A stretch of 64,000 bases of DNA from Albifimbria verrucaria (lineage: Eukaryota; Ascomycota; Sordariomycetes; Hypocreales; Stachybotryaceae). Below are positions 12,091 to 64,000 of the stretch, piece by piece; the stretch's first letter is position 1, and the number at the start of each line of letters is the position of its first letter. The notes beneath the pieces are model-generated. The model was not told where the DNA came from. It saw only the letters and a program-made list of their open reading frames with translations, and searched no databases. Location: positions 4,154,001 through 4,218,000 of the forward strand of contig JAHREC010000011.1 in the NCBI GenBank assembly GCA_020081605.1, in the 5' to 3' direction. The position numbers and the translations under genes are program-made.

Positions 12091-15000
12091 TCAGTGAAAC
12101 GATTTTTCAGCAGATTCTTTCCATCTACGTGCCCAATCCTCAATACGTGCCCCGATGTGATACTGTATCCAACTTTCCAGCTAGTAAATGTGTCAATGGA
12201 TATACAGAAGATGCTATTGAAACGTGATTGACTTACGTGAAAGTACTTAAAGATGACCCAACCCAGGAATGTAAACACAAGCGACAACACCCCGTTAGAA
12301 GAGACCAACGCCAGTCTGGGTTGGCTGCCAATATGTTTACATTCATACCGAAAAGACTCTAACCAAAAACAATGGGAGTTTATGTTAGACAATAGAGCTT
12401 GACGAGTGAATAGTTGTTCATGCCAGACTTACCGATGCAAACATCAGCGGAAGAAAGACAAACTAGGTTATGAGTTAGTGACGCCTAGTTGATGAAGTCG
12501 TAACATACAGTTATCCAACTAAGCCGCTTCATACTAGCCGAAACCGTTGTTGATTGCCGAGCTTCGTTGATAGAGACTAAATTGAACTCCTAGATACTAG
12601 ATCAGTCGAGTGACTAAGGTTTGCAAATGGGAGCCACCTGACTTACGACCTGAATGAGACTTTGTAATCTCTCTTCGAGTGTGAGAATATTTGGTCGTAC
12701 AGCCTCATCAAATTTGTGTATTCTTGCCTCACACATTTCACTGGATCCTCTGAGGAAGAAGATAGTGCAGTAGTCTAAAAACCCTGCGGCAGATTTAACA
12801 TGCAAATTTAACTGCTCAAGAAGGAAGCCAGAAATGCGGCAGTTTCAGTAGCTCATCAAGGAGACTAGTGCTTCGACCTTTGCTCTCAAAGACCTTTCTC
12901 CTCTAGAATTCGGGTTAAAATCTGGAATGTCCAATCTAAATTTATGCCACTTACTATGGTGACCAGATGCTGGTCCGCACGCAGACATATACCTGTCCAT
13001 TCATCCGTGACATGGTCTAAAAGGATTCCGAAGAAGGCAAGACCATCATTTGGCAGGAAGCCCAGAGGTAGATTGGTGAGATGGTCTTTCGTAACCCATA
13101 ATGTATCGGAATCTATGAGTGTTTTGTGCAAGGTCCAGGCAATTAAAAACCCTGATTTTTAGAATGTTCCATTTGCTACCTACTCCGATGGAAAATCGAG
13201 CTTCAACGCAGTATATGTTCTCGGTAGTATCCCGTATCTTATGATATATGATCGTGGATTGGGATGCCGAAGGCGATTTCAGCCAGCGAGGAATATGTTT
13301 TATTACGCTGGCGCTATTAGGAGACAAGTAAAGCAATCTAAGGAGAAATACTTACCATATATTTCTCTGTCGCGGTGCCTCTGAAGGAATCGGCCAGTCT
13401 GACCAGTTGTTTGACCGGATGAATGAAATTGAATATTGTGGCTTCTCATACGCCGCGATCTTTGCAGAATCTAGAATTAACACAGCATTCTCTGGCTCTT
13501 TGAAAGCTGATTTCCAGTCTTTCACCGAAATGCCGCTTATATCTGAACCTGCTTTAAGCAGAATGTGAACGAGCTCACAATCTTGTTGTTGAATCGCGTA
13601 TTGAATGGGAGTTATACCATTTGTACACTTCTTATTAACATCCGCATTACGAGTGATTAAGAAGTGTAGCATCGGAATTGCTTTATGGACAACAGCCAAA
13701 TAGATTAAACTTCTGCCTTGATGGTCTGTCGAGTTGATATCACAACCCATGTCAAGAAGTGCCTCAAGAGGTTCCTTCTGGCCGTCTTTGACAAGAAAGC
13801 ATAAGGAAGTGTCGACAGTACTGAGAAGACATTTTAAAACTTTGAGATTGCCCATTTCCAAAGCTATCAGTAAGGCTGTATGATTGTTTTCGTCGAAAGC
13901 GTCCATATTTACGTGAGGAAGAAGTCTCTTAACGAGAGACCTTTTATTGTGCTTGGCTGCATAATGAAGGGCAGTACGGCCAAATTGGTCTTTCTTGAGC
14001 CCATTAGCTTTTACCTCAAGCAGTTGAGCCACAACCTCTTCATGTGCGCCCTCAGACGCCCAAATTAATGGTGTCCAACCATTTTCGTCCTCGGTATTTA
14101 CGCCAACAATGCCACTCTGTGTTAATATCCCAACGACTTCATTGTGTCCTCTTGCAGCAGCCCATGAAAGTGGTGTTCGTCCTTTGTTGTCTTTTGAGTT
14201 GAGGTTTATATCAGACCGTTTCATTAGCTGTTCCACTACGGAGACTTCACCAGCTTCTGCCATGATTGATAGCAGGGTTCGACCGGCCCTATCTTTCAAG
14301 TCTGCTTCCACATCTTTCACTGAAAGAAGAAGATTGATTGTGGTAATATCCTTTTTGAAGCAGCCAATAAAAGCATCGTGTAACCTTCTGAGTTCCTCAT
14401 ATTGACATCAATGATGTAATGCCCAAGTAGAAGATCAACAATTGAAGTTTGACCACATTCTATGGCAAAGAACACCAAATTTGTCCCACTACTACCTATC
14501 AAAGTTTGGAGTTCAGGATAGTGGTGCAGTAGTAACTTGGTCAGTTTCTCATGACCGAGTTTTATAGCGAATTTTAGTATAGCCTGCCAGTTTCGATTAC
14601 CAAAATTGTTCTTGCAACCACGCTCGAGAACTAGCGTAATGATGTCTAGCTTTGATCCTTCAAATATCCAAGAGCAGAATTCATCGTGTACTGAGATAAA
14701 TGGTGCCGTGTTTATGAGATTGACGATATCCATCTCCCGACCTTCATATGCGAGGGATGTAAGCTTTGCAGCAACGTAATCCTCTAGTTGCGAGCGTGAT
14801 GTACCGTTCGTGGTCAAAAGTTGGATGATGGGCATTTGGAAATCACCGGTAGCATAAGATGGCAGTGTTGTCGTGCTCAGATCCTCTGCGGGTGGATTGC
14901 TATTCAGCTCTATTAGCAGTCTTATCATGTCATCGTGTCCTTTTTGACGGCGTATGATAGAGCTGTCCTAATGCTTTCGGCTTTCAAAGGTGATTCGACA

Positions 15001-17284
15001 TTCGCTGCAAGTACTTGTCGTACCGCAGATTCATGCCCGTTTTCAGCACCATACCATAACGGTGTCTTCTTGTATGCATCTTCCAAATATGGATCAGCAT
15101 TCTTCTCAAGTAGGAGTCGAACGACAGACTCATGTCCATTTTCGGCAGCATATGAAAGTGGCGTTCTATTGCTATTATCCACTGCGTCTGGTTCCTGCTG
15201 CTCTAACAGGTCTCTCATCGCTTCTTGGTGGCCAAATAATGCTACAAGATGCAAGCTAGTAAATCCACCGGGGCCTTACGGCTGGATGTAGTATTTTCTA
15301 GCTTACACTCTCCTATAAGCGAGCCTTGAATGATGGCCTCAATCTTGGAAAATACTGTCAAAAACGTGGGCTTGTATTGACTGTGTGGTACTTTGTGCGT
15401 ATGAGCCCCCAGTAAGTACATGCATAGTTGAATAGTGGATGGAGCAAGAGCCTTTGTTCAAAGTCCAAATCGCTCGAATGCAGCCCATTGTTGAATATGT
15501 CGAACGCCAAATACGTCATGCAAGTTCTGGCAATCAATTCATGCCCATCTTGAATGATGGCTGGCTGGGTCTGCTTGAAGTACTGCTCTATTGTGAAGTG
15601 AGCTAGTCGCACGGTATTGCTCTTGTTATCGATTATAACCAGTCCATGACAGAGCGAAAGTATCTCTGAAAGCGCGGCAAGATTGCTGTCTTGAAATCCA
15701 GACCCATCAAGCATAAAACCGAGAGCGTGTTGTAGTTCTATTGGTGTTATTAGCCTTTTCGCACAAATAATCCATGACAGGGCTCCTATCGAAAGGCGTC
15801 TCTGTGGGGAAGATTGGCCACGAATTTGTTCCATGATATCTTTATATATTTGATCAAAAGCGTCCGAAACTCTCGCATGTTCCTTAGACGCCGTATCAAT
15901 GACTATAGGTAAAGATTTGTCATCCCAGGCGTCGCAATACAACTGTGCCAGCAGAAATCTAAACGGTTTTAGTATCAATCTGGGTACAAAATAATAGGAT
16001 ATCCTACTAACATCCCGTCGGCATATCTCAGAACGCTCTGCTTGATTTTATTGGCTAAATCGAGATCAAACCAGTCCACATTTCTGAAGCGCATGAGCCG
16101 ATGATCAATATATGAACTGATATCATCATCGACAGCCCGAATTTCTAATAACTCCGCGCTTTTGAAGCTGGCCACAATGTCTGGTAGAGGACGAGAAGTG
16201 ACGAGAATGTTGGATCCAAAATGAGACTGAAACCTCTTAAGCTCAGAAACCAATCGCGATCGACAAAGGCTAGATGAGTCACACTCATCAAGAGCATCGA
16301 CGATGATAAACACTCTAGAGTATTCTTCAATAACAGAGTGCAGAGCCCGGGAAAGCTCGTCAATGGATGGTCTGGTCTTTCTCTCCTCATGCTGACCATA
16401 GAGCTGATTCAGGATTTCAAGAGTCGAATTGCGTCCATGAGAGAGCTGCTTGAGAAAATTCGACACTACTTGTTCTAGAGTCTGTTGGTCTTTCCGTCGA
16501 GAATCGAAGTATATATAGCATATTCCCACTGTCTCATCAGCATTAAAGGCTTCCTGTAAGTTTCTCACAACGATAGATGAGAGCATAGTCTTGCCTGTTC
16601 CAGGAATTCCAGGACAAAACAATGTACTTGAAGTCGTAGTTTTCCATTTTCTATATTCCTCGGAATCGAGCAGCCATCGCCCTGTTCCTGGTAGCTGTAA
16701 ATGAATACAATATGATAGCTGAGTCTTATATGTGATTGGTGTCAGCCAGTCAAGGATCTCTTGAGGTTTATCGAGACTTAGACGTGTAAATGGATCTGTT
16801 TCTAAAGCCAAGAGGCTAGTTGTTTGGCAAGAACCCAGGTCTAGGCTGTTCAGATTTGTGATAATCGATTCAATCTGATCGATTGCAGCGGTAAATTTAT
16901 GGCTGCTAGGTGAAGATAAGTGAGTTCGTTTTCTCTTTTCTTTAGAAGTAAACCAATCCTATTAAAAACTATGGCATACCTATTCGGGGGTTTTAATATT
17001 CTTGAGGATGTTATGGCATGTGTTACCAATATCACGAAGATGGATTTCACTAGCTTCGGTAATGTTGCCTTTAGGAAAGAACACGATAATATCATCAAGC
17101 GCGGTTTTCAGCTTATCAATCCTAAATGTGAAATATTGTTAGCAGTGGCCTCATAAACGTGAACAGTTACGAACTTCAATGATATCCGTCGAAAATGTTT
17201 AGGCCGGCGCTTGAAATCGCCCTGAATCTCACGGGCTAGCTCAGGAAGAGCAAAAAAATCAGGGAGAGTGAACCGGGTACTCAT
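12091..17284 (-). CDS. STAND/NLR-like protein: N-terminal domain, NACHT, ankyrin repeats, CorA-like membrane domain
   Basis: The start at 17284 opens a helical N-terminal domain (LPELAREIQGDFKRR..) typical of fungal STAND proteins. NACHT follows, with Walker A GIPGTGKT (about 16587-16610), Walker B VFIIVDALDEC (about 16280-16316) and the LVTSRP sensor motif. Ankyrin repeats (TPLSYAAENGHESVV and similar, at least ten) occupy about 15260-13370. The last 1.25 kb encodes a CorA-like domain: DHLTNLPLGFLP, EFNLVSINEARQST, FLPLMFASSLFGMNVNIL with the GMN signature at 12341-12349, a second hydrophobic helix, and LESWIQ to a stop at 12091. Introns seen include 17122-17170, about 16910-16985, about 15975-16010, about 13310-13350, about 13155-13190 and three or four within 12180-12660. 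Homopolymer breaks occur near 14320, 14937, 15283, 15408 and 12283. A split into two genes at about 13340 cannot be excluded. Confidence 0.78.
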
Positions 17285-17754: not shown

Positions 17755-18893
17755 ATGCATCTTGATCACAAATTACCGTGGACGACTCTAGCTTCACATT
17801 TCAAGCTGGAGCGTCTCAATAAAAGCCACACGCCTCTGCGTACCGATGTCTTTTCTCTCAAAAAGAGAATGAAGGCGTTGATCTTGGTCATTTTAAGAGG
17901 AAATTCATTGCAGCCATACGCGAATTCTCTACGACCGAGCAGCAAAAGCATACCCCAATCCCTGATTTGGAGCCGCCTGGGGACGACCTGTTTTCTGATG
18001 ATGTCCTGATATTTTCGGAGCAATTATACAAATCCATACCTTCCTCGGAAGATCCTTGGCGGAGAAATCATTTGGACAAGCGTCACCAGAGTCTACAGCA
18101 TTGGATTGATCGAGCCTCGGATGATGAAGGTAATGCAACCAGATATACCTCGGACGATTGGGATCTTGCCGATGCTTTTCAAGCGCTCATTATTATATCT
18201 GCTATCTCACCCGATCCGATGATCAGCAAAGACGCCATGTCGGCAATCTTCCGTTTGGCACAACATCCTAGAGTTCCATTTCGTAGCCTCGACTCCGCCC
18301 GCCGAAACAACAGCTATAATTTACGCTACATTTTAACAAAGGCGCTAGAATCTTATCTCCTATTCAATGTAGCAGATAAACTTCAAGAACAAGGAACCAA
18401 TGTAAAAATTAACGAGCTAAGTTGTTTTGATGCTTGGACATATTGCGGGTCTCTTGGTGATGGGTATGAGGTTCACAACTTACCCTTTCGGGCATTCTGC
18501 GAGGATTGTGGAGTTGAATTCAAGGCCGTTTGGCGCTCAATTCCTGTTGGCACCAACAAGGATGATTCTCATGAAATGGCTCTTGATCCACTGATTCATC
18601 ATAGAGAAGCGTGCCAACGTCATCTTCGTGTCTGTTTTGCTCTCATGTACAAGTTTCATGCGCTGCGAAGGTATTGGTATGATGACGAGGACAAGGCAGA
18701 TAAGTGGTGGGAATTCGAACTTTTTCACGTCTTTCGTAGATGGGGAAGTCGTCAAAGTTTTCCGGTTATGTAACGTGGCATGAGACTGATGGAAGTAGCG
18801 CTGTGGTTTTGTCATTGCCGAAGGCTATGTCAAACTCCGAGCTGGAGTTATCGAGAACTTCAAGAGACAGATACAAGGCAGATAGGGATAAGT
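17755..18893 (+). CDS. Unrecognised fungal protein, divergent partner of the STAND gene
   Basis: The longest clean block (17967-18773) is acidic and helical (DDLFSDDVLIFSEQLYK..), with an internal CEDC pair followed by several histidines and cysteines (HHREACQRH). This could be a zinc-binding element. Reading upstream from 17967 continues open, and one base added in the TTTT/CTC stretch near 17868 joins it to the ATG at 17755. One base near 18763 extends the C-terminus to 18893. The corrected length is about 380 residues. There is no signal peptide, no transmembrane segment, and no HET, HeLo or lipase motif that I can see. Its head-to-head position beside a STAND receptor could mean functional pairing, but this is only positional. 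Confidence 0.55.
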
Positions 18894-31437: not shown

Positions 31438-32537
31438 ATGCCTTTCAACACAGAGCTGACCCGCCGTCTGGGCATCAGAGGTAGCTGATGAACCCGCCCG
31501 TCCTACGCGACCACGTACTGATGCACTTCTACCTACAGTCCCCGTCGTCCAAGGCGGCATGATGCACGTTGGCACCGCCGACCTCGCCTCCGCCGTGTCC
31601 AACGCTGGCGGCCTCGGCATCATCACCGCCCTCATCTTCCCCACGCCCGACGACCTGCGCAAGGAGATCCGACGCTGCCGAACCCTGACCAAGTACCCCT
31701 TCGGTGTCAACATTACCCTCCTGCCCGCCATGGTGCCCCCGACTACGGCGCCTACGCCCAGGCCATCATCGATGAGGGCATCAAGATTGTCGAGACGGCC
31801 GGCAACTCCCTGGCCCCGTCATTGCCAAGCTCAAGAAGGCCGGCATCATCGTCCTGCACAAGTGCACCACCATCCGCCACGCCCAGAGCGCCGTCAAGAT
31901 GGGCGTCGACTTCCTCAGCATCGACGGCTTCGAGTGCGCCGGCCACGTTGGCGAGACCGATCTTACAAATTTCATCCTGCTCAGCAAGGCCCGCCAGACG
32001 CTCAAGGTTCCTTCATCGCCAGCGGTGGCTTCGCCGACGGCTGGGGACTGGCCGCTGCTCTCTGCCTTGGTGCTAGCGGTGTCAATATGGGCACCCGCTT
32101 CATGTGCACTCAGGAGGCGCCTATTCACATCAAGGTCAAGGAGGAGATTGTCAAGGCCGACGAGACCGACACCACCCTGCTGCTGCGCCGCTGGCGCAAC
32201 ACCACCCGTCTCTACAAGAACAAGGTCGCCGAAGAGGCCCTCAAAATCGAGCAGGAGAGCCCCACTGGCAAGTTCGAGGAGGTCGCCGCCCTGGTCAGCG
32301 GCAAGCGCGGCAAGGAGGTCTTCGTGACTGGCGACCCTCAGCACGGTGTAAGTCGATATGTGTCTCTGTGTGCGAACGATAAACTGACATGTTTTCTAGG
32401 TCTGGACCACGGGCCAGGTCATCGGTCTGATTCACGACATCCCCACGTGCGACGAGCTGCTGAAACGTATGGAGAAGGAGGCTGCCGCTGCGCTGCAGGA
32501 GCGCCAGGCGCTGTGGGTTCCCGAGTCCAAGCTGTAG
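31438..32537 (+). CDS. Nitronate monooxygenase (2-nitropropane dioxygenase family)
   Basis: This is an FMN-dependent enzyme that oxidises alkyl nitronates to carbonyl compounds plus nitrite, a detoxification role. Exon 1 (31438-31480) encodes MPFNTELTRRLGIR. After an intron at 31481-31538 come VPVVQGGMM, SNAGGLGIITAL and FGVNITLLP. The substrate-site block DGFECAGHVGE with its conserved His follows, then the FMN-phosphate region IASGGFADGWGLAAALCLGASGVNMGTRF, which is split at a C-run break. A second intron is at 32348-32399 (GTAAGT..TAG). Breaks near 31737, 31808 and 32010 are all in CCC-type runs. Corrected length is about 345-350 residues, as expected. Confidence 0.92.
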
Positions 32538-34272
32538 ATTCCCATTTAGCATATAAACCGAAGCGTTATAAATTTTTGTACTTACATCAATCATGGCTGT
32601 TTTATGTCTATAACTGACGTGTTTCTTCGAGCCATTGTGCTCTTATCTGTACTGAGTATATACACCGGCTTGATGTGAATGTCAATGAGTTCGTCTGCCC
32701 TTGAGAAAAATCCAGGTTCTTCAGTATATTCACTAATTGCACTGCTGCTCCCAGAGTGCTTGGTCCATGGGTCCGTATTGGATCATGGAAGCTATGGATA
32801 AGGCTTCGAAGAAATGCACACTAAGCTGAAGAGTTGGCTACTATCTGGACATAACAGGTCTGGTTCTATATTTGTATAAGGAAAAGATATATAATAACGA
32901 GTAATAAACAGTTACGGTTATGTACAGCAACCATATCAACTTCTTGTTTCTCATACGTGCCTGTAGAGCCCTAACTTCTTTTCGACCACGACACCGGTGG
33001 CGTGGCAACCGGCGCCACACACAAACCCGAAGCATTAAGGAACTAGGAAGGTAGTCTGGAGCAGTTCTGCTGAAATGCTCTACTTATTGGGCCTAGATGC
33101 GTCATTTGGAATAGAGATGGTGGGTATCAAAGTTGTGATAAGATTGAAACAGTGACCTTTTCGTTTTGAGGGCAGAAAGAAACCTTCAACCATTAAACAA
33201 AAGCAAGGCCAGAGTAATGTAGGCTCTATCATACCAACTTCACCTCGTAGTCTTCAGCTGCAGAGCTTTCTCTAGAGGATTCTGGGGTAACGTATAATAT
33301 CGGTTATCCCATGTCAGTGGCTTCGGCCTGCTCTGCATATGCAGCCACATGATCCTCTGGCGGGTGCACCTTGCACGTGCATCGATTTGCCGTCGGTGGC
33401 ACTATCAAATATAGGATGCTCACCGTTCGATGCGAGATGGGTTGCAATTATGGAGTACATGGCTTGCAAGGGGATTGAGTGTGGGATGTCAACATCCACT
33501 CTCATGCAAGACATATTTGGACTAAGCCACCTCAGGCCGCAGACCGAAATCGAATGCTCGATCGATGCGAAAAGCCTACCAAGCTGGTGTGGCACTATCG
33601 GGCTCTCCATTCCAGCTGCAACTCTGTGTTCGTCATCGTCACTTTGATCCATAGCCATGTGTACACATAAGCTTCATCATATATATGTAGGACAATACGA
33701 GCTGGCTTTGTCAGAATGAGTCGTCTCTGGAGCGGATCTTACCATAGAATCATTTCTGAGATAACATTCCTTTGGAAGTCAAGAATACCGGCAAAGTTAA
33801 GACTACGCAACGAATCCCCACATCATAGCAACTCCCTGTTAACTTGCGGAGAATCGCCACCAGGAAACCCTGCCCCGAGCGGCCCGTGGCGGCATCTTAT
33901 TATAACGGCGCTGTCAACGTTTGTAATAAGTGGAGTGGCAAACTCAATTAATAGGGATTGACACATGAACCGTGCATGGCTTGTTGGTATGGCAAGAAAG
34001 ATCCAACGCTGATTCGGCGACAGGAAGAAACGGGATGAGAAAAGACAGAAAGACTTCGATGTGCTTTGGAGCTACGTCACCTGGTGGCAACGACTATTAA
34101 AGCTCAAATGAGTCTGGTGAGTAAATAGCTGGCCTAGAGTTTTATACCAGGTCAGCTCAGAGGTGAAGAAGCTGACGAGGCTTGACAGAGACGAGTCGGT
34201 GGTTCTGGGCGCATGACAGCAAATACTTGGCAAACTGATTCACGTGGTGTCATATAATTAATCATTAGGCTA
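32538..34272. other. 1.7 kb intergenic region
   Basis: Apart from the weak frame at 33314-33658, nothing coding is recognised. Confidence 0.4.
33314..33658 (-). CDS. Possible small protein or coding remnant
   Basis: This 114-residue open frame (MAMDQSDDDEHRV..) has a fairly protein-like composition but no recognisable family. A + strand frame of similar size overlaps it. It could equally be chance or a decayed exon. Confidence 0.2.
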   Translation of the reverse strand: MAMDQSDDDEHRVAAGMESPIVPHQLGRLFASIEHSISVCGLRWLSPNMSCMRVDVDIPHSIPLQAMYSIIATHLASNGEHPIFDSATDGKSMHVQGAPARGSCGCICRAGRSH

Positions 34273-40536: not shown

Positions 40537-41272
40537 GGTTGGAATGGCTGGTAATGAAGACTGATGAAGTTTGTGTGTGAGTCAAACTGTGAGCGATGCG
40601 AGAAAGGATCGAGGTGCCGATGGGGGCCTTTATATGCGTTGTGCCGAAATGGCCATGTTCATGTGAAATTGAACTATGCCACGCAGGAAGTATGGGGAAA
40701 ATGCCCAGATTATCGCTTCCCAGAAACTTCACATCCAAGTAAAGTCATCGGTGCGACCCCTGCTGGAGTCAGCAGATTCTTTCCCCGGATGATGTGGGGA
40801 TGCGGAGGGAATCATGAATAGTGCCACCCCAACGCATCTGAGAACAGGAGCCTCCTGTGCCTCCTCTCCTTCACGTTCGGATGCTTTGATGAGGCCAATT
40901 AGTTAAAGACTTCGAGGTGGAGTTATGCGGGGCTTGCAATTGTCGAAGATGCGGAGTCTCCGCCGCCATCACTGGCTATTCCTTGGAATGACACGATGTT
41001 TGGTCAGTGGCTTTGCAGATCTCCACTTTGCATTTGGAGCATGGACGGAGTGAATTCGTTTAAACTGCTTCCCGGTGATCATGTGGAGCACCTTGAATAT
41101 CCGACAACCATCTCCGTGGGGAATTAAAGGTGGAGATGGTAAATGCTACAATACAAGAAGCATGGGATTCCAAGCTTCTGCGACCATCTCTGCTAAGAAT
41201 GCTTTCCTGGAGCGCCATCCTTACCAACTCTCCCTTTGAAGCCCCTCGCCTTGAGCATCGAAAAAATCCGCA
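40537..41272. promoter_or_regulatory. Shared divergent promoter of permease and alpha-glucosidase
   Basis: This is a 736 bp interval between divergent starts. It contains the palindrome CGGAGTCTCCG at 40952-40962, that is CGG-N5-CCG, the inverted-triplet type recognised by Zn2Cys6 dimers. ATGCGG occurs three times (near 40800, 40925 and 40949). These are candidate binding sites for the adjacent regulator. The assignment is inference from motif type only. Confidence 0.4.
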
Positions 41273-43076
41273 ATGGGGTCAATGGTATGGGACACAGCCA
41301 ACGGCTTTGTCGGCAAGAAGACATGGTGGAAGGACGCGACGTTCTACCAAGTTTATCCGGCCAGCTTCAAAGATTCAAACGGAGATGGCTGGGGAGATTT
41401 GCCAGGACTAATTTCCGAGGTTGACTACTTGAATGACCTGGGAGTAGATGTCATTTGGGTGTCACCTATTTTCGAGAGCCCTCAAAAAGATATGGGCTAT
41501 GATGTATCGGATTATCAGAAGATCTATGAGCCATACGGGACGGTAGAAGATGTTGACACACTCATTCGCGAGAGCCACAGACGCGGAATGAAGGTGATAC
41601 TGGACTTGGTGATTAACCACACCTCGGATCAACACGCATGGTTCAAGGAGTCTCGAGCATCAAAAAGCAACCCAAAGAGAGACTGGTACATATGGAAGCC
41701 TCCTCGCTACGACGAGAATGGCATACGACACCCTCCGACAAATTGGCGTGGCTATTTTGCCTGTCCCACCTGGACTTTTGATGAGCATACACAGGAGTAC
41801 TATCTGCATCTATACGCTCCTGATCAGCCTGACTTGAATTGGGAAAATGAGGAATGCCGTGAAGCAATCTATGAAAACACGATGCGGTTTTGGCTAGAAA
41901 AGGGTGTTGATGGATTCCGCATCGATACCGTCAATAAATACTCAAAACGCCAAGACTTCGTGGATGCGCCGATAACAGACGCCACTTTGCCGCATCAGCC
42001 AGCCCCAGAGATGTGGTGCAATGGTCCTCGCATACACGAGTTCATCAAGGAAATGAACCAAAGATGCTGGCGCCGTACAACGCCGTCTCTGTAGGCGAGT
42101 TATCCAATACGCCACTTCCATCTCAAGTCATTCCATACGTGTCTGAAGCGGCCAAGGAGCTTGATATGGTGTTTGAATTCTCAATTATCCGCTTAGGAAC
42201 AGGCAATATCCTAGGCGGCAAGTATATATACCAGCCTTATCCGCTTTCACGGCTCAAGTTTTTGACCGAGACATGGCAACGTTTCATTGAGGGCACCGAT
42301 GCTTGGACAACGGTGTTTTGCGAAAACCACGACAACGGGCGTGCGGTGAGTCGATTTGGAGATACATCAACTGCTGAATGGTGGGAGAAGTCAGCCAAGA
42401 CCATTGCATTGTGGCAGGCAACCTTGACTGGAACCCTTTTCCTCTACCAAGGACAAGAGATTGGAATGACCAACATGCCTAAGACGTGGGGATGGAAGAA
42501 TATAAGGATATCGAGAGCAGAAATTTCTACGCTGAGGCTGTTGAGTCTGGGGACAAAGAGCGCATGAAAGCCACCCTCGATGGTATTCGCATATTAGCTC
42601 GGGACCACTCTAGGATTCCCTTCCAATGGAACGCCGAGCCAAACGCGGGCTTCGCACCTGCAGGTGCCACACCTTGGATGCGCGTACATGATGATTTCAA
42701 ATTCATCAACGTGGCTCAGCAACGTGAAGATCCGCATTCAGTTCTGAACTTCTATAAAACGGCCCTACGGATGCGAAAGCAACATAGAGATATCTTCATT
42801 TACGGAAACTTCAGACTACTAGACTCTGGAGATGAGTCGATATTTGCATATGTGAAGGAGGAACCTGTACAAGTAGTCAATGAAAAGAGGACAAGGAGGA
42901 AAGCAGTCGTGGTACTCAATATGTCCCGCGAAGAGCGTCTGGCTCCGGATATCCAGAATATCTTGGGTAATGATGCACGGATGCTGATTAGCACGAAGGC
43001 AGGCGGCTCGGGTGTTTCGAGGAGTAAGGGGTCTTTGATAGAAGGTTGGGAAGGTCAGGTCTGGGTCAATTTCTAA
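41273..43076 (+). CDS. Alpha-glucosidase / maltase (GH13, oligo-1,6-glucosidase type)
   Basis: This enzyme hydrolyses maltose and related alpha-glucosides to glucose. There is no signal peptide, so it is likely cytosolic and acts on sugar imported by the adjacent permease. GH13 motifs appear in order: YQVYPASFKDSNGDGWGD, region I DLVINHTS, nucleophile D218 in GFRIDTVN, acid/base glutamate in SVGELSN, and transition-state Asp in FCENHDNGR. The YQGQEIGMTN motif of this subfamily is also present. Frame breaks near 42062 (AAA) and 42490 (GGGG) are single-base. The corrected protein is about 600 residues, normal for fungal maltases. Confidence 0.95.
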
Positions 43077-53672: not shown

Positions 53673-54949
53673 CTACTGTGCCTCATCGGGATCTGGGACA
53701 GAGACTGCACCCAGGAGCTTCTTGTCTTGCGCTGTGAGCTGTTCAACAACACTCTGCATTTGACTGGTGACTGCATCGAGTTGAGGAACGCTGATGATGT
53801 TGGAGCGGTAGACGAAGAATAGCTCAATGTGATCTTCATGCACAAATCCGTGCAGGATGAGGGAGTATCTGCAAGAACGAAGCATACCATCTTCCGCCTT
53901 GAGGATCTCTGGACCCACTGGGCTGAGGAGCGGCTCGGCAGTGCTCTTTGTTGATGTTGCTGCCTTTTGGCCAGGCTGGATGACTAACCAAGTCGAGCCG
54001 GCAACTGCCTGACGAGCGTCTTCACTGAGATCACGGATGTTGTAGAGACCGTATTGCTCATGAGGAATCATCTCAGAGGCTTCTTCTTGCAGCTCCTGCA
54101 GGAAGGTTGAAACTGGCTTCTTGCTGTCCAGGCGGACACGCACAGGAACACGGCCAATTGCAGACGCTGCTATCCTTTCAAGTCCAGGAACAGGTGCTTG
54201 ACGTCCAGAAAGGGTCATACCGAAGGTTACGTCGTTTGTATCGTTGTATGATGCAAGGACCATAGCCCAAGCAGCGCGCACGATCGTAGCCTTGGTGATT
54301 CCACTCTCGGTCGAGTAAGAAATGGGGAATCTAGACGTGTGGAACTGTGTAACGTTCTTGGAACCGACAACCTTGGGGTCTAGCACAGGTAAGCCGCGTG
54401 GGAAAGAAGCACGCTTGGCGCCACGCATTTGCTCGAGCCAGTAATTCTTGCTGACATCGCGATCAAGGCCTTGAAGGTACTTGATAAAGTTGGAGTGGGG
54501 TACCAGACTGAGAGGTGTAATGGCTGCATAGTTGCGATGTAAGGTATCCATCACTAGACTGGTTGACCAACCATCGAACATGGAATGGTGAATCATCCAG
54601 ATGAAGTACTTGGCGCCGCTAGCCTCCTCGATGAGGGCGTAGCGGCAGAGTCGTGTACCGTAGCTCATCTGCATACCATCAGTTGATTCGAGGAATGATT
54701 TGGCATCCAAATTGGCGGTGTCCTCCCATTGGAGTTCTGTAGTTACAACTTGGAGATGCTGGCCACCATAGGTGACGATCCTTGTACGCAAGATAGTGCA
54801 GTTCTCAACGGTACGTTCCCAGGCAGATTTGAAGCGAGCCAAGTCGACGCTGTTAGGCAGGCGGTATGCTTGCTTGGATACATATGTTCCTGGTTGCTCG
54901 ACTGCAACTTGCATGAAGTACTCCTGCGATGTTGTGCAAGGATAGATAT
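53673..54949 (-). other. NRPS: terminal condensation-like domain (CT)
   Basis: It starts at IQDIYPCTTSQEYFM (about 54949), with HHSMFDGWS near 54590. It ends at the protein C-terminus with no following carrier domain, so it probably catalyses release and cyclisation. Confidence 0.75.
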
Positions 54950-57900
54950 CTTGAATGTCTGTTTCTGATAGGTTGCACTTGCTGCGAACCTCAGACGCGA
55001 CTGATTCCGTCTCGTCAGTTGGCAATAGGCTGAATGGCTCAGCATCAAAGGACTCGCTCTCAGCTACAGATGCGAACGAAGCCAAGCTATCGAGCCTTTG
55101 ATGTTCGAAAATACTGGCCACTGTAATGTTGATGCCCTCTTGTTGGGCCATCGAGGCCAATCGAATAGCATTGATGGAGTCACCACCAATCTGTAAGAAG
55201 TTATCCGTCTTACCAATCTCCTCCACTGAAACACCCAAAACCTCCGCCCATATATCACGCAACTTAAACTCCATCTCCGTTGTTGGCTCCACCTTGTTGC
55301 GACTTGCCAGAGAGTATGTGACGATTTGTTCCTGAGAAAGTCCATTGGCCAAGTCTCGTAGTCTCCTCCTGTCAATCTTCATAGAGGTGATGAATGGCAT
55401 GGTATGAAGAGGGAGGAAGAGTGAGGGCACCATGTAAGAAGGCAGTGCAGCCTTGAGGTCGTCAATCAGCTTGGCGAGGCGTTCCTCCATAGCTGGCTCC
55501 ATCGACTTGATTAGCTGAGACTTGTCCGATACCGAGTCTTCCTGGTCAAGGAAGCTCATGTATGCAACCAATGTTTCGCGTGAGCTTCCTCGCACAACTT
55601 CAGCAGCAACATGTTCAATGCCAGGAACAGCCTTCTTAATATTGTACTCAATTTCACCAAGCTCGATACGGAAACCACGAAGCTTGACTTGAGTATCCAA
55701 TCTACCGAGGTACTCAATTGTTCCGTCTGGGTTGTAGCGACCGAAATCGCCGGTCTTGTAGAATTTACGAGTGTCCTCAGGAGAAGTTTCGAGCCAGCTG
55801 ACAGACTTGATGAAGGAGCTGTTGGTTCGCTCCTCATCATTGAGGTAGCCACGAGCCATGTGTCGCTGGAGGAAGATCTCACCAACACATCCAATTGGTG
55901 CAAGGCGTTCGTGGTTATCAGGTTCAACGATCCAAAGGGCACCGCTGAAGCCTCGTCCGATGTTGGTTGGTATCTCATCTGCTGACGTGTAAAGATGCGA
56001 GGCACAGAAAATAGAGCATTCTGATGGACCATAAGCGTTGATAACGTTTACGCGGCTGTGCCAGGTTTCAATGGTATCCTTGTTTGGCGGCTCACCAACC
56101 AGCATCAGGGTCTCGAGCGAGGAACATCATCTGGACGGATGGTTCGGAGGAAGGATGATGTGAGTTCGGCTGTGTTGGTTTCACTAGCCTTGATGAAGCC
56201 AGTAATGTCCTCCAATCGTTCAGAGTCAGTTGGCACACAAACTGTACCTCCAAAGGCAAGGGTTTCGAAGATCTCGCTCAAACTGACATCAAAGACGTAG
56301 CTTGAGAATTGAAGAACTCGGGATCTTTCGTTAAATTGGTATGCTCTATCGTGGCCGATGATGCTCGAGGACAGAGCGGCATGGTCAACCACAATAGCCT
56401 TCGGCTTGCCTGTGGATCCTGATGTGAACAAAACATAAGCTGCGTTGCTCGGGACAGGTTTGTGTAGTGGTTCAAGGTTATCGGTTGAGCGTGCCAGGCG
56501 AGTAAGCCAGGCACCCGACAGCTCGATAACACGTGAGGTCATGTTCTTGCACGACGATGCAGTGGACGGCGACACAAGCATCAATTGAGCACCAACTTCC
56601 TTTACTAGTGCCTGTCTTCGGCTCGCAGGGTGAGTTGGGTCAACTGGAATATAAACACCTCCTGCCTTCATGATTCCGAGCATGCCAATAATAGCCCACA
56701 TTGACTTCTCGGAGCACAGAGGGACCATAGACTCTGGCTTAACGCCCAGGCGTGATAGATAGCTGGCCAATGCAGAAGATAGACGCTCGATCTCGCCGAA
56801 AGTCAGGCTACCTTCAGTGGAGTAGAGAGCTTCCTTGTTAGGCATAAGCGATGCTTGCTTGGAAACAAGGTCGTGAACACAAGCGTGCAGGATTGGATGC
56901 TGGTGGCTGTTCCATTTCTTGGCTTGCTGAAGATCCCAGGACCCGGCAACAGAGACATCGAGTAGCGGGGTATCATCCTGGGCAAGAAGCTTCTGCACAA
57001 CGTGGTTGAATTGCCTTGACAGAGCTGTCAATTGGGCCTCGCTGAGGACGTTCGACTGATACGTGAACAGAAGCTCCACGTGATCATCGTAGACCAAGCA
57101 ATCGTTGACAAGAGGATAACTGAAGTAGTTTTGCAAAGAATCCTCAGTATCGTGTAAGTTAGACTGCGCTGGTAGCAAGATTGTGTCCTCAGAGACATCG
57201 CCGGAAGCGCCCATGTGCTGAGCTGGCTGAATGACGAGAAGACTGGTGAAGTCACAAGCCTCCTTGGCATCAGGGCTTAATCTTGAGATGTTGGGCATGC
57301 CGAATTGTTCATAGGCAATCATATCGGAAGATTGGGTCTGAATATCCTTCAGGAACTTCGCCACGGACTGTTGCCTGTCAAGACGAACGCGGACAGGAAC
57401 AGTGGCTACAACAGGACCTGCCATAGTTTCAAGGCCTGGTACAGACGCGTTACGACCTGAAACAGTGGTTCCGAAAGTAACATCATTGCTGTCACTGTAA
57501 CGAGCGAGAACAATGGCCCATGCGGCTCGCAGAATCGAAGCCTTGGTGATGGCGGACTTTGTCGAGCGAGGGAAGTCGACGTTGCTCTTCATCATACGCG
57601 TTGCGCTTGGAGAACTGTTGGAGCTGTTGGCAGGCGGGAAGGCAGCTCGCTTGGCATCAGCAAGTTGAGTCTTCCAATAGTTCGTGGCAGCCTCGGAGTC
57701 GAGGTCAGTGACATATTTGATGAAGCCAGAGAAAGGCTGCAGTGGTGTCATTTCAACACCCTTGTAGGCTCGGTACAGTGCATCCATCATGATCTGAGTA
57801 GACCAACCATCGAACATGGCGTGGTGGATAATCCATACAAAGTAATTCTTTCCATTCTCCTGGATGATAGCGTATCGGCAGAGCGGAGATCCATAGCCCA

Positions 57901-60900
57901 TTTCGATGTTCTGAGTCTTTGCAAGGAAGTCACTCAGAGTCACATTTTCTGTCTTCTCCCAAGCAGCTCCTCCTTGGATTACTGCTTGGATGGAAGATCC
58001 TCCGAGATGTACAATCCTGGTGCGAAGATTTGTGCAAGCATCTAGCGTGCGCTCCCATGCAGCCTTGAACTGATCAAGATCGACATGCTGTGGTAGCTCA
58101 AATGCTTGTTTGGAGATGTAAGAACCTGGCTGTTTGACGGCTAAGGCCATAAGACCTTCTTGGAGACCAGTGCAGGGGTAGGCATCTTCAATCTTATCTG
58201 TATCCGCAAGAGCACACTGTTCTTGAACCAGAGAGAAGATGGCCTCGAGTTGGTCAGAAGGAAGGAGGCTGAAAGTTTCAACCTCGAAGGATTGAGCGCT
58301 TCCTTCGACGGCAATGGATGCCATATGAGACAGCCTGGAGTCTTCGAATATCTCTGCAACAGTGAGGGTAATGCCATTCTGTTGTGCTAGGGAAACGAGC
58401 TGAATGGCTGTAATTGAGTCACCACCAATTTGCAGGAAGCTGTCGTTCTTGCCAATCTCGTCGACCGGAGTTCTGAGAATTTGGCTCCAAATGTCACGTA
58501 GCTTGAGTTCCATCTCAGTAGTAGGGGCCACCTTGTCTCGAGCTGACAAGGAATAGGCTGCAAGTTTATCGCTCGAGAGGCTAGCTGCGAGGCTGCGCAG
58601 TCTCTTCCTGTCTAGCTTCATGGCGCTAACAAAAGGCATGGCTCCAAGAGGAATGAAGAGGGAGGGAACCATGTATGCGGGGAGCAAAGCCTTGAGATCG
58701 TCAACGAGAGTGATGACACGTTGTTGAAGCTCATTGTCCATTGGCAAGAGGAACTCAGAGAGATCACGTTCCTCGACACTAGCGGCAGTTTGCTTGTCAA
58801 CGAGATTGATGAAAGCAAGAAGGGTCTCGCGGGACTCGGATCGTATAACATCCACAGCAACATGCTCAACAGTTGGAAGAGCTCGCTTAATGGCATATTC
58901 GATTTCGGCGAGTTCAATACGCTGTCCGCGGATCTTGACTTGGGTATCCCTTCTGCCCATGTATTCAAGCGTTCCATCAAATTTGTATCGGACCAAATCT
59001 CCGGTCTTGTAGAACCTAGCTGGAGCATCTTGCTCTTCTTCATCATCGTCATCATCGTCCTGAGACGCTGGCAGCCAGTTGACAGAATCAATAAATGATT
59101 CCTTGGTGCTCTCCTCATTATTAATGTAGCCTCGAGCTAGGGTGTATCCCTGAACAAGAAGCTCTCCAATGCAGCCAATAGGTGTGAGTCGCTGATGATC
59201 GTTAGGATCGACGATCCAGCAAGCGTTGTTTGCACCACGACCAATCGTGGTAGGCGTATCCTTTGGCGATTGGAAAACATGAGTCGAACAGTAGATGCAA
59301 GCTTCGGCGGGACCGTAACCGTTGATAAGCTTGAGGCGGTTCTGCCAAATCTCAATAGTGTCCTTAGCTGGGGCTTCACCACCAACGACCAAAGTCTTCA
59401 GTGAAGGCACTTGATCAGGTGTGAAAGTTCGGACGAATGAAGGCGTAAGCATAGCCACGTTCACATCGGCTCTGGTAATAAACTCGGCAACATTTTGGAG
59501 TCGTTCAACATCTGTTGGCACACAGATGGTACCACCCCATGCGAGGGTTGTCATGATCTCTCCCAAACTTACATCAAAGACGTAGTTGGAGAATTGCAGG
59601 ACTCGAGAGTTCCTGTTGAGCCCATAGGCTTTACCGTGTCCCATGACACTAGAGCATAGGGCTGAATGCTCAACAACTACACCCTTAGGTTTACCAGTAG
59701 ATCCGGAAGTAAACAAGACATAGGCAGCATGGTGAGGAGCAGGGCGGAATCGAGCTTCCACTGTGCCCCGTGGAAGCTGAGAGACAAACGAGGGCGATAA
59801 CTCGATGACATTGCGAACCATGTTCTTGCAAGACTGAGCCGATGAGGGCGAGACAATCATGAATTCTGCTTTGACCTCTTCAACAAGCTCTTTGCGGCGT
59901 GTGACAGGATGCGCGGGGTCAAGAGGAATGAAGGCACCGCCAGCCTTCATGACACCGAACATGGCAATGATGGTCCACATTGATTTCTCAAAGCAAATTG
60001 GGACCACAGTCTCCGGACGAACACCCAGCTGTGAAAGATGGAAAGCCAGCTGAGTTGAGAGACGGTCAAATACACCATAAGTCATAGAGCCTTCCGTTGA
60101 GAAGATGGCAGGATGGTTAGGAGTGCGAGTGGCACGTTCGGAAATGAGGTTGTGGATGCATGCTTCCACCAGATCGGGTTCATCGTTCCACTCAATAGCT
60201 TGCTGCAGATCCCAAGGACCAGCAACGGTCACGGCACTTAGAGGAGTCTCATCCTGCGCTAGAAGTTGTTGAATGACATGCTCAAGCTGGTGCGAAAGGG
60301 CCTCTAGTTGTTGTTCAGCCAATATGTTGGCATGGTAGGTGAGGAGGAGCTCAACGTGCTCATCGTAGACGAGTCCCTGAAGCACCAGAGGGTAATTGAA
60401 GTAGCCCTCTAGAGCCTCGTCTTCGCCATATTCGTCCGCGCTGGCAGGAACCAAGACAGCAGCGTCCGAGGACTCATCAGTTGAGCCGGCTTGTTGAGCA
60501 GGTTGAACCAACAACAGGCTGGAGAAGTCGCAGGCATCCTTTGCATCAAGGCCAAGTTTGGAAATGTTTTGAATACCGAACTGCTCAAAGGAATGGCATC
60601 GTTGGCCTGTGTCTGAATCTGCGACAGGAACTTCGAGATTGCCTGTTGACGATCCAATCGCACACGAACAGGCACAGTTGCGACAACTGGACCGGCCATG
60701 CGCTCCAATCCGTAGACAGGTGCGTTACGACCGGAAACTGTGGTGCCAAAGCAAACATCGTCAGAATCACAATAACTGGCTAGCACAATTGCCCATGCAG
60801 CTCTGAGGACTGAGGCCTTGGTGATTGAGGTAGCCATAGACTTAGGGAAGGCAATCTTTCGCTTCAAGTTCTTTGTGATGCTTCCATCTGTCGACTCAAT

Positions 60901-63900
60901 AGTATGAGAGGTAGGAGGGAATATGGCTTTCTTGGCATCACGAAGCTCTGACTTCCAGAAAGCACCAGCCTTCTCGGGATTGATGTCAATAGTGTACTTG
61001 ATGAAGCTGGAATATGGCTGAAGAGCAGGAACATCAAGCTCAAGATACGCGCGGTAGAGTGTATCCATCATGAGGCTCATAGTCCAACCATCGAATATAG
61101 CGTGGTGCATTATGAGAGTGAAGTAAGTGTCGCCACTTGGTTCGTTGATAATAGCGTAGCGGGAGAGAGGTGAGCCGTAACCCATCTCAACGTTGTGCTT
61201 GGCACTCATGAAGGCACGCAAAGAGACATCTTCTGTTGACTCCCACTGAGCAGGGCCATTAACTAAGACCTGGATAGACTGGCCTCCAGCCAATACGATA
61301 CGAGTACGCAAGTTGCAACAGACATTGAGGGTTTTCTCCCATGCCATTTTGAATTTGGCAATATCGACACGGGATGGCAATCTGTATACGTACTTCGCGA
61401 CGTAAGAGCCAGGTTGTTTGGCTGCAAGAGCAAGAAGACCTTCCTGCAGCTTGGTGCAAGGGTATGCATCCTCAATTTCTTGTTTCTCGAGAAGGGCGCA
61501 TTGTTCACGGACGGATTCGCCAATTGCGAGGTCACGGCTGGTCTCGTCCAGGAGTTCGAAAGCAGCGATTGTAGTTTGGCCATCGCTACCATCGGTTTCT
61601 ACAGCCTTGGCTGCGATGCTCGAAAGCCTGGGATCGTCAAAGATATCCTTGACAGTAATAGAAATTCCAGCCTCCCGTGCAGTGGTGACAAGATGAATTG
61701 CCGTAATTGAGTCACCGCCGATACGGAGGAAGCTGTCGTCTCTTCCAATAGACTCCAACGGCAGATGGAGAATATCTCCCCAAATCTGTTGCATTCGGCT
61801 TTCCATTGGTGTCTCCGGAGGTCTCTTATTACCGTCGGAGAGTGCATACTGAGCGAGGGCCTCGCGGCTGAGGTCATTTGTCAGGCTTCGTAGAGTATTG
61901 CGATCAAGCTTCGTAGAGGTAATAAAAGGCATGAAGCGACAAGGGATGAACAGAGTAGGTATCATGTATCGTGGAAGCGTGATGCTAAGTTCTCCCACCA
62001 TAGCAGCAATTTGATCCTGTAATGTGGCGTCGAGCGGTAGGAAGACAGAGCTATCATCAGCAGCAAGGTTGATACCCGCGGTTCTTGACTCGTCGTTGAA
62101 GCAAAGGTACGAAACAAGGTTAACACCGGCTTCATTCTTGAAGACATCCACAGCCACCTGTCGTACGCCCTTAAGTGAGGCACGGATATGATGTTCAACT
62201 TCACCAAGTTCGACTCGCAAACCGCGAATCTTGACCTGCGTATCCTTTCTGCTAGAGAATTCGATAGTTCCGTCTGAATTATAGTAGCAGAGATCGCCAG
62301 ACTTGTAGAATCTGCCCCATTTAGCTTCACTTCGGCGTGGAGCCCAGCTAGGAAGATCTCGCAAGGTGGATTGCTTTGTTTTCTCGGGATCTGCAAGGTA
62401 CTCTCGGAGAAGGGTTGGGCCTTGGATAACAACCTCTCCAAGTGTTCCGACAGGGGCTAATTTCGCAGGGTTGTTTGGATCCACGATCCAGCAGAAACCA
62501 CCAATAGGTCTGCCAACATTGAGTGGTGACTCGTCCGCTGACTTCCACTCGTGGATTGAACTGAAGACACAGGTCTCAGCAGGTCCCCAACCGTTGAAAA
62601 GCCGCACCTTTCCGAACCAAGCCTCGAAAACGTCACGTGTGACTGCCTCACCAGCAAGAAGCATGGATTTCAGGCCTGGAAGGTCTTCAGGCTTGAGCGT
62701 TCTTGCAAATGACGGGGTGAAGAATGCGGTATTAACGCTGGCTTCTTGCATAAACTCCTTGAGTCCGTTCATTCTGCTCTCTTCTGATGGTACACACAAG
62801 CAAGCACCGTTAATCAATGGACTGAAGATTTCTCCGATAGCTAAGTCGAAGACGCATGCAGCAAATTGCAGCATTCGAGTTTCTTCTGAGATATCCAAGC
62901 GCTTGCTGATAGCAGTCTGACTGGTGCAAACAGAGCCGTGCTCCATAATCAGACCCTTTGGCGTACCAGTAGATCCAGAAGTGAACAGCACATAGGCAAT
63001 GTTTCTGGGCGTGACGTTGGAAGCAGGCGAGCTAAGAGCCGACTCTGGTGCTCTAGAAATAAGAGACTGGATGAGTTGAGGCGTCACTTCCAGAACATTA
63101 TCAACCAAGCCGTCACAAAGGTTCTTGTTTGCAGGTGAAGACAGAGCAATCTTCGCCTTTGTTTGGGACACGACTTGTTGCTGTCTTTGAAGGGGATGCG
63201 AGGGATCAAGCGGGACCCAAGCAGCGCCAGCCTTGTTGATTGCCAGAATTGATACGAAATACCAAGCAGACTTTTCGAAGCAGACGTGGATCAAGTCATC
63301 CGGCCGAATGGCTTCACTCTTGAAAAGGAAGTGCGCAAGAGCATTGGAGTAGCTATCCAGTTGGCTGTATGTGAGCTGTGCATCCCAAGCATGAATAGCG
63401 ACCGCATCAGGTCGGATCTGAGCTTGCTCCTCAATGAGTTGATGCAAGCAGCTATCCACAATCTCTGGAGTCTCGGCATTCCATTGAAGTGCCTGCTGTA
63501 CATCCCACTCTCCAGAAAGAGTGACAGCGCTCAAGCTTGTATCGTCTTGGGTTTGCAGTTGTTGAACGACATGATTGAAGTGCTCAGACAAGGCCTCCAT
63601 CTTTGCCTCCGACAGAACATCGGAGTTATAGATGAGAAGAAGTTCAATGTGGTCATCATACAGAAGACCCTGAATGACCAATGGGTAGCTGAAGTATCCC
63701 TCCATAGACTCCTCAACGGTGAACTTTTCGGAATCCACAGCGACGAGAACGGAATCGGCCGTCACATCAGTAGAATCCATTTGTTGGGCTGGCTGAACAA
63801 CCAACAAGCTGGTGAAATCACAAGCATCCTTGGCATTGGCTCCCAATTTGATGATGTTCTGGAGACCGAACTGCTCATAAGCAACCATGTCAGATGATTG

Positions 63901-64000
63901 GGTTTGAATGTCTTGAAGGAAGCGAGAGACAGTCCTATTCTGATCCAAGCGAACCCGGATAGGAACAGTAGCAATCATCGGACCGGCCATTTCGCTGAGG
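53673..64000 (-). CDS. Multimodular nonribosomal peptide synthetase, C-terminal part (N-terminus beyond window)
   Basis: Read 3'-ward from the right edge the order is (C)-A1-T1-C2-A2-T2-C3-A3-T3-C4, stop at 53673. All three A domains keep the ATP-binding core (LFTSGSTG.PK) and the YK(T/S)GD(L/F) and RVELGE/RIELAE-type cores. All T domains keep the phosphopantetheine serine (IGGDSI). The three complete C domains keep HHxxxDG (HHAIFDG, HHAMFDG, HHSMFDG). No epimerisation, methyltransferase, thioesterase or reductase domain is present, and the protein ends shortly after C4 (VSVPDPDEAQ). Such terminal C domains release fungal peptides by macrocyclisation. Frames break near 60590 and 56125, each fixed by one base, so this is one ORF of at least 3,430 codons with no intron seen. 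The product is unknown. Confidence 0.95.
54950..58189 (-). other. NRPS: module C3-A3-T3
   Basis: C3 starts at EDAYPCTGLQEGLM (about 58189), with HHAMFDG near 57825. A3 spans about 56890-55355 and is split by the single-base break near 56125 (DDVP..ETLMLVGE). The code reads D-V-S-L-M-V-A-I-F-K. T3 serine is at about 55176-55178. A2 and A3 share long near-identical blocks around the A4 core. Confidence 0.8.
58190..61489 (-). other. NRPS: module C2-A2-T2
   Basis: C2 starts at EDAYPCTKLQEGLL (about 61488), with HHAIFDG near 61107. A single-base break lies near 60590. A2 spans about 60170-58580 and contains an unusual acidic insertion (six D then three E) at about 59014-59065, before the YKTGDL core. 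The code reads D-V-G-L-V-G-G-I-Y-K. T2 serine lies at about 58415-58417. Confidence 0.8.
61490..64000 (-). other. NRPS: end of upstream C domain and module with A1-T1
   Basis: The first ~165 visible residues are the C-terminal end of a C domain (VRVRLD..FLQDIQTQSSDM). A1 spans about 63470-61880, and T1 has its serine at about 61708-61710. Aligning A4-A5 cores with the GrsA positions gives the specificity code D-L-G-F-L-A-G-V-F-K, suggesting a small aliphatic substrate (inference). A1 is the most diverged of the three A domains. Confidence 0.8.

What the first reader, a model, noticed from the sequence alone, without database searches (positions are those of the whole stretch)
12091..17284. 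NLR-like gene combining NACHT, ankyrin repeats and a CorA-like membrane domain
One minus-strand gene appears to join a fungal STAND N-terminal domain, a NACHT with intact Walker A and B, at least ten ankyrin repeats and a C-terminal CorA-like domain with a GMN motif and two hydrophobic helices. Ankyrin-CorA proteins and NACHT-ankyrin proteins are each known in fungi. All three together would place a sensor/NTPase on a two-helix membrane channel-like module. Ligand sensing could then gate ion flux or membrane damage, an uncommon layout for a fungal immunity or allorecognition receptor. This is the strongest candidate for an undescribed system here.
Basis: partly seen in the sequence, partly recalled or inferred. 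Interest (0 to 1): 0.78.

Follow-up and report, generated by a model that had tools for sequence, protein, structure and literature searches.

The report
Fungal immune-type receptor with channel-like tail
A fungal gene joins an immune-receptor-type switch and a long ankyrin-repeat arm to a membrane end resembling that of a magnesium channel; the same combination turns up in several other fungi and could tie non-self sensing directly to a membrane.

Summary
It reads: SesA-like N-terminus, NACHT with Walker A and B, winged helix, long ankyrin array, CorA-type tail with GMN and two hydrophobic segments. A 42-base GT-AG intron (13355-13314) joins ankyrin and tail in frame, and tail splice sites agree with single-protein homologues, so two genes are unlikely. 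(1) The frame changes about eight times. A relative's predicted protein runs through four of these, and similar breaks litter a giant NRPS elsewhere in the assembly, so assembly errors are likelier than decay; a dead gene is not excluded. (2) The architecture is not unique: 11 of 75 database proteins found carry NACHT, ankyrins and CorA (Apiospora, Pseudogymnoascus, Fusarium, Colletotrichum, Alternaria, Boeremia, Whalleya). NACHT and tail trees disagree, so the tail seems to be a swappable module. The papers searched do not mention it. Best reading: a membrane-anchored NLR-like receptor whose CorA-derived tail may carry the output; ion flux is untested. In four CorA-tailed members fewer than 70 residues precede the NACHT, little room for the usual N-terminal effector. 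New variant of a known kind.

The parts
16983..17284 (-). N-terminal SesA-like helical region; ATG at 17284, GT-AG intron 17174-17122; the reading from about 17000 to 16885 is unresolved (two frame changes or an intron)
   Evidence: fsalign 52-114 against N-termini of P0002, P0080, P0004 and P0076, shuffles at most 37; SesA PF17107 33.3 bits in P0080 (cut-off 26.3), weak in P0076, P0077, P0002, P0004, not listed for P0078, P0082 and P0003; no Pfam hit in the window piece itself; splice
16191..16688 (-). NACHT-type NTPase core (NPHP3_N PF24883), Walker A about 16610-16587, Walker B about 16310-16284
   Evidence: E 5.3e-37, 128 bits, profile 1-164 of 164
15959..16011 (-). GT-AG intron between NACHT and winged-helix region
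   Evidence: splices in frame to ...YADGIFLLAQLY...
15574..15804 (-). winged-helix domain (GPIID_WHD PF22939)
   Evidence: 28.2 bits, cut-off 27
13356..15266 (-). ankyrin-repeat array, read in three frames in this assembly (changes near 14945 and 14352; two more just upstream near 15408 and 15274)
   Evidence: Ank_2 E 1.4e-18, 1.7e-17 and 5.6e-57; predicted protein P0001 runs through all four, 717 of 873 identical
13314..13355 (-). 42-base GT-AG intron joining the ankyrin exon in frame to the CorA-like part
12091..13313 (-). CorA-like part: cytosolic stretch, stalk and two-segment membrane end; introns 12954-12903, 12646-12590, 12508-12463, 12432-12359, 12236-12181; stop 12093-12091; frame changes near 13150, 12840, 12820 and 12290
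   Evidence: the first four introns recur in alignments to P0002, P0003 and P0004, the fifth in those to P0002 and P0004; scores 246-422 vs shuffles at most 42; composite PF01544 21.6 bits, E 1.5e-4, below cut-off
12299..12358 (-). exon with SLFGMNVN (GMN motif) and end of hydrophobic segment 1, which begins in exons 12589-12509 and 12462-12433; segment 2 in 12299-12240
   Evidence: spliced reading; hydropathy

Best explanation
This is a fungal NLR-like (STAND) receptor gene whose C-terminus carries a CorA-type two-helix membrane module. Shown from sequence: the domain order, splicing into one reading, shared ancestry of the tail with single-protein homologues of the same order, and the presence of the same kind of tail on several NACHT lineages and on ankyrin proteins without NACHT. 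Inferred: the tail puts the receptor in a membrane and brings subunits together in a CorA-like ring; ankyrins (and possibly the tail's cytosolic part) sense a ligand or a disturbed partner; the NACHT nucleotide switch frees the complex; the output is membrane-borne, either through the CorA-like helices or by aiming the SesA-like N-terminus at that membrane. The breaks in this copy are most likely assembly errors.
For: Domains, frames and introns. NACHT + ankyrin + CorA in 11 of 75 proteins found, eight of them re-scanned, PF01544 over its cut-off in 8 of 8. Tail tree of 68 rows: window with Apiospora P0002 and P0003, SH-aLRT 95; NACHT label 3 changes, at least 2 forced. NACHT tree of 71 rows: CorA label 4 changes, at least 3 forced. 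GMN in 65 of 68 tails holding the helix-1 motif, the other 3 ending before it. Nearest solved structures to the tail of homologue P0028 are CorA channels, 4eeb E 9.1e-7. The NACHT match starts at residue 32, 37, 56 and 69 in P0016, P0028, P0008 and P0015, against 172-180 in P0002-P0004; P0025 begins inside the NACHT and is not counted (gene models unchecked). Break background: at least 28 frame changes in 39.3 kb of a giant NRPS, mostly deletion type (17 of 21 rows, 16 of 20 distinct places, in stretches chosen because they looked broken).
Against: No expression, localisation or ion data. Structure prediction could not be run. The window tail is below the PF01544 cut-off. At Kyte-Doolittle 1.6 only 7 of 12 homologues show both tail segments, 2 show one and 3 none, and 4 of 6 controls without CorA show some segment. 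The window's nearest NACHT relatives carry no CorA (none of 120 listed rows of 685 hits, read by eye), and its NACHT branch is long (1.46 against a median of 0.34), as for a fast-changing or decaying gene. Breaks are denser here (4 in 2.6 kb) than the NRPS average; 18 of 123 NRPS windows of that size have as many, while the NRPS in the window has only 2 in 10.3 kb.
Confidence: 0.45

Rival explanations
1. Integrated sensor or decoy: the CorA-like tail is bait or ligand-binding surface at the usual C-terminal sensor end, and the SesA-like N-terminus is the effector, as in ordinary fungal NLRs.
For: The window gene has a SesA-like N-terminus. Three of the four nearest NACHT relatives fetched (P0076-P0078, not P0082) end in a zinc-finger-like sequence (by eye; Pfam only weakly, PF25299 E 0.017 in P0078). 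Sordariales NLRs carry 185 non-canonical domains in 378 NLRs, the commonest being C-terminal binding domains proposed as sensors, with some kinases proposed as decoys (PMC12258605, passages).
Against: Four CorA-tailed homologues have under 70 residues before the NACHT. GMN is kept in 65 of 68 tails with the helix-1 motif, more than a bait surface would seem to require (inference).
Confidence: 0.27
2. Regulated transporter: the protein is a Mg2+ or other cation transporter with an ankyrin and NACHT regulatory front, serving ion homeostasis rather than recognition.
For: Tail is homologous to CorA; most tail relatives found are ankyrin-CorA proteins without NACHT, and genome papers count fungal CorA proteins as magnesium transporters (PMC10694956 and PMC3897900, passages).
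Against: TIGR00383 far below its cut-off in 5 of 5; first third of the CorA profile not matched in 8 of 8; NACHT and tail joined or exchanged repeatedly.
Confidence: 0.13
3. Decaying gene: the frame breaks are real and this copy is a pseudogene of a receptor that is intact elsewhere (not exclusive of the other readings).
For: About eight frame changes in 5.2 kb, four of them in 2.6 kb, against an NRPS lower bound of 0.71 per kb; long NACHT branch.
Against: No substitution stop in 873 aligned codons; all four changes there are of deletion type, the type that dominates in the NRPS control; splice sites and motifs kept.
Confidence: 0.2
4. Two adjacent genes, a NACHT-ankyrin gene and a separate CorA gene.
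For: The predicted protein P0001 of a relative ends where the window's intron begins.
Against: In-frame 42-base intron; P0002 is one database protein that aligns across the join, P0003 is one too although its alignment jumps the join; both are unchecked gene models.
Confidence: 0.03

Closest known systems
Fungal NACHT-ankyrin NLRs (T-NACHT/Ankyrin class of PMC12258605)
   Same: N-terminal helical domain, NACHT, winged helix and ankyrin array; nearest NACHT relatives in Apiospora, P0076 46% identical over 504 residues
   Different: No CorA in any of the 120 listed rows (by eye)
NACHT-ankyrin-CorA proteins of Apiospora hydei (P0002) and A. aurea (P0003)
   Same: Same domain order; tails group with the window's, SH-aLRT 95
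   Different: Uncharacterised gene models; their NACHT is not the window's closest (40% and 37.5% against 46% for P0076)
Fungal ankyrin-CorA proteins without NACHT, such as P0013 (Fusarium) and the C10 locus of the same genome (L050)
   Same: Homologous tail with FGMN; C10 shares the three exon junctions around GMN
   Different: No NACHT in P0013 and none at E 1e-5 within L050
CorA magnesium channels (PDB 4eeb, 3jcf; Thermotoga maritima recalled)
   Same: Stalk end, helix 1 with GMN and helix 2 align with the tail of homologue P0028
   Different: E only 9e-7 for that homologue; first third of the profile not matched in 8 of 8; a NACHT-ankyrin front precedes it
Plant resistosomes such as ZAR1 (recalled)
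   Same: NTPase-driven receptor that may end in a membrane pore
   Different: There N-terminal helices enter the membrane on activation; here a two-helix domain sits at the other end

Membership tests
Fungal NLR (NACHT class) | NACHT-type NTPase with Walker A and B | tested here: met
   PF24883 E 5.3e-37; PF05729 NACHT itself 24.2 bits, just under its cut-off of 26.7; motifs read
Fungal NLR (NACHT class) | C-terminal repeat array | tested here: met
   Ank_2 E down to 5.6e-57
Fungal NLR (NACHT class) | annotated N-terminal effector or signalling domain | tested here: inconclusive
   no Pfam hit in the window; alignment to N-termini of relatives above shuffles; SesA at or over its cut-off in P0080, P0131 and P0150, weak in P0002 and P0004
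Fungal NLR (NACHT class) | role in recognition or cell death | not testable with these tools
   needs genetics
CorA family (PF01544) | score over the curated cut-off | tested here: inconclusive
   window composite 21.6 bits, cut-off 27: not met; NACHT-bearing homologues 8 of 8 over it
CorA family (PF01544) | GMN at the end of helix 1 and two C-terminal helices | tested here: met
   SLFGMNVN exon; hydropathy 1.73 and 2.13, by a threshold that also rings in 4 of 6 controls elsewhere in the protein
CorA family (PF01544) | N-terminal alpha/beta cytosolic domain | tested here: not met
   profile match begins at position 105 or later in 8 of 8 homologues; a diverged version is not excluded
CorA Mg/Co transporter (TIGR00383 equivalog) | score over 200.75 bits | tested here: not met
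   26.4-44.4 bits in 5 of 5 homologues scanned; the window itself was not scanned
CorA family | pentamer and cation transport | not testable with these tools

The most novel reading that the evidence does not exclude
An all-in-one immune channel: the CorA-derived tail forms a ring-shaped cation channel in a membrane, and the NACHT-ankyrin front replaces CorA's own Mg2+-sensing funnel as its gate, so that ligand recognition opens or closes ion flux with no separate executioner. Fungi would have built this more than once by attaching different NACHT lineages to the same ankyrin-CorA module.
Probability: 0.2. Interest if true: 0.85.

Novelty: new variant of a known kind. Interest (0 to 1): 0.52.

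Why it matters
Fungal NLRs are usually thought to kill or signal through their N-terminal domain, with the C-terminal repeats as sensor. A recurrent class with a CorA-type membrane end, some members having little room for an N-terminal effector, would put the output or the anchor at the other end and could link non-self sensing to ion flux in one protein. It also warns that counts of 'CorA magnesium transporters' in fungal genomes may include receptor-like proteins.

Tried and rejected
Two-gene reading: rejected. Pfam on single window pieces of the tail: nothing; only the joined reading shows CorA, weakly. Genome-wide CorA scan: 23 matches, none in the window. DNA search with the tail: only itself. 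Counting ankyrin units by regular expression: too strict, dropped. AMP-binding scan as error yardstick: only 14 of 341 candidates scored, all high scorers, not usable; replaced by the NRPS control. In one search I chose stretches because they looked broken, two of them overlap and one place is counted twice, so its 21 changes (20 distinct) and 2 stops in 14.7 kb are no mean; the 28 in 39.3 kb is a lower bound. The first alignments against P0002-P0004 used permissive introns and give nonsense introns in the ankyrin part; only the tail introns on which they agree are used, and the intron at 13355-13314 comes. P0012 (ankyrin-CorA-HET) may be a fused gene model and was left out of the argument. 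Tail tree: of P0001-P0075, 66 went in, plus the window and C10; 3 were dropped as cut short (P0044, P0074, P0075) and 6 for lacking the helix-1 motif (P0001, P0026, P0041, P0046, P0048, P0049); P0015 was added by hand. NACHT tree: the window, 10 CorA-tailed proteins (P0024 and P0025 left out) and the first 60 of the 119 new proteins listed. Both trees are quick ones with long branches flagged.

Papers: PMC4986451, PMC12258605, PMC12881547, PMC10694956, PMC3897900, PMC9815663 and PMC10197012, passages found by term only. In PMC4986451 and PMC12258605 'cora' at word start matched only 'coral(s)'. Supplementary tables were not open to me, so CorA may be in the domain list of PMC12258605. The statement that I found no description rests on the searches (open-access papers only) and on those passages.
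Full report
What is there. The window is part of contig C8 (4154001-4218000) of a 48.4 Mb assembly in 41 contigs, a fungus by its genes (inference). Between them are an N-terminal helical piece, a NACHT-type NTPase (PF24883, E 5.3e-37), a winged helix (PF22939, 28.2 bits) and ankyrin repeats (Ank_2, E down to 5.6e-57), then a CorA-like tail. Splicing at GT-AG sites 17174-17122, 16011-15959 and 13355-13314 reads in frame; the last one, 42 bases, leads from the ankyrin frame straight into the tail. Alignments to P0002, P0003 and P0004 agree on tail introns 12954-12903, 12646-12590, 12508-12463 and 12432-12359, and those to P0002 and P0004 also on 12236-12181. Tail scores against five homologues are 246-422, while 40 shuffles each reach at most 42. 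The two hydrophobic segments and GMN survive splicing.

State of the frame. The frame changes near 15408, 15274, 14945, 14352, 13150, 12840, 12820 and 12290, and the stretch from about 17000 to 16885 is unresolved: it needs two frame changes or an intron. The places downstream of 13355 and upstream of 16943 rest on distant homologues and are approximate. A relative from an unnamed metagenome contig is held as a predicted protein, P0001, of 879 residues; it runs through the winged-helix and ankyrin exon and is identical to the window in 717 of 873 aligned positions, with no substitution stop in the window. Its DNA was not seen. Is this decay or assembly noise? A giant NRPS on another contig needs at least 28 frame changes in 39.3 kb; in stretches of it chosen because they looked broken, 16 of 20 distinct changes are of deletion type, like the four in the window exon. 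Against the noise reading, 4 in 2.6 kb is high (18 of 123 NRPS windows of that size have as many), and the NRPS in the window has only 2 in 10.3 kb. I take noise as likelier and decay as possible (0.2).

Relatives. Two searches aimed at the tail found 75 different proteins. Eleven carry NACHT (PF24883), ankyrins and CorA (PF01544) together: P0002, P0003, P0004, P0008, P0015, P0016, P0017, P0020, P0024, P0025 and P0028, from Apiospora, Pseudogymnoascus, Fusarium, Whalleya, Colletotrichum, Alternaria and Boeremia. One more, P0050, has a partial NACHT and CorA with ankyrins below cut-off, and most others are ankyrin-CorA without NACHT. A search aimed at the NACHT gave 685 hits from the 7985 candidates scored; none of the 120 listed shows PF01544 (by eye). 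Three of the four nearest that I fetched, from Apiospora, end in a zinc-finger-like sequence (by eye; weak Pfam support in P0078 only). In the same genome an ankyrin-CorA locus lies at C10:6959559-6961788, with the same exon junctions around GMN and no NACHT match within the fetched 9.5 kb.

Trees. In the tail tree (68 rows, quick method) the window groups with P0002 and P0003 (SH-aLRT 95), and the NACHT label needs 3 changes, at least 2 forced by well-supported branches. In the NACHT tree (71 rows) the CorA label needs 4 changes, at least 3 forced; the window sits with four Apiospora proteins lacking CorA (92), on a long branch. Long branches make both trees uncertain in detail, but together they suggest that NACHT and tail have been exchanged or joined more than once.

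What the tail is. In 8 of 8 NACHT-bearing homologues PF01544 passes its cut-off, but the match begins at profile position 105 or later of 292. TIGR00383 is far below its cut-off in 5 of 5. The best solved relatives of P0028's tail are CorA channels (4eeb, E 9.1e-7; 11 distinct sequences at E up to 1). So it is CorA-derived at the membrane end; it is not shown to be a CorA transporter. Seven of 12 homologues show both tail segments at the hydropathy threshold, 2 one and 3 none, and 4 of 6 controls without CorA have some segment over the threshold, though no C-terminal pair, so the transmembrane claim needs experiment.

How it most likely works. The NACHT and ankyrin front makes it an NLR-like switch; the tail probably makes it membrane-bound and may assemble it. 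The window protein resembles relatives with a SesA-like N-terminus, a family that a Sordariales survey merges with HeLo-like domains, which it lists as pore-forming (PMC12258605, passages). In P0008, P0015, P0016 and P0028 the NACHT match begins at residues 56, 69, 32 and 37 (gene models unchecked), which leaves little room for such a domain and points to the tail as output. I commit to a membrane-anchored receptor with membrane-borne output (0.45); decoy or sensor (0.27), transporter (0.13) and decay of this copy (0.2, not exclusive) are the main rivals. No step beyond sequence has been shown.

Novelty. I call it a new variant of a known kind, interest 0.52.

Noticed in passing
C36:1155001-1195000 of the same genome (L034-L037): What looks like one minus-strand giant NRPS with at least 28 frame changes in 39.3 kb: the assembly seems to carry many indel errors, a warning for every gene call from it.
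   Followed up: yes
window 53673-63998: NRPS with three long open frames and two frame changes; Pfam on the middle frame shows AMP-binding, carrier and condensation domains.
   Followed up: partly
window 41255-42567 and 31460-32617: Alpha-amylase-family gene and nitronate monooxygenase (Pfam), each apparently with frame changes too (by eye).
   Followed up: partly
C10:6959559-6961788 (L050): Ankyrin-CorA locus without detected NACHT, sharing the exon junctions around GMN with the window gene.
   Followed up: yes
C9, C17, C18, C19 and C37 of the same genome: Ankyrin loci with identical search scores on five contigs, as in a recently copied block, perhaps subtelomeric (guess).
   Followed up: no
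P0035 (Thelonectria olida): NACHT_N (PF17100) followed by ankyrins and CorA but no NACHT: an NLR-type N-terminus set directly on the ankyrin-CorA module.
   Followed up: partly
window 17823-18773, plus strand: Divergently oriented open frame of 316 residues next to the receptor gene, with no Pfam hit; a possible head-to-head partner.
   Followed up: no
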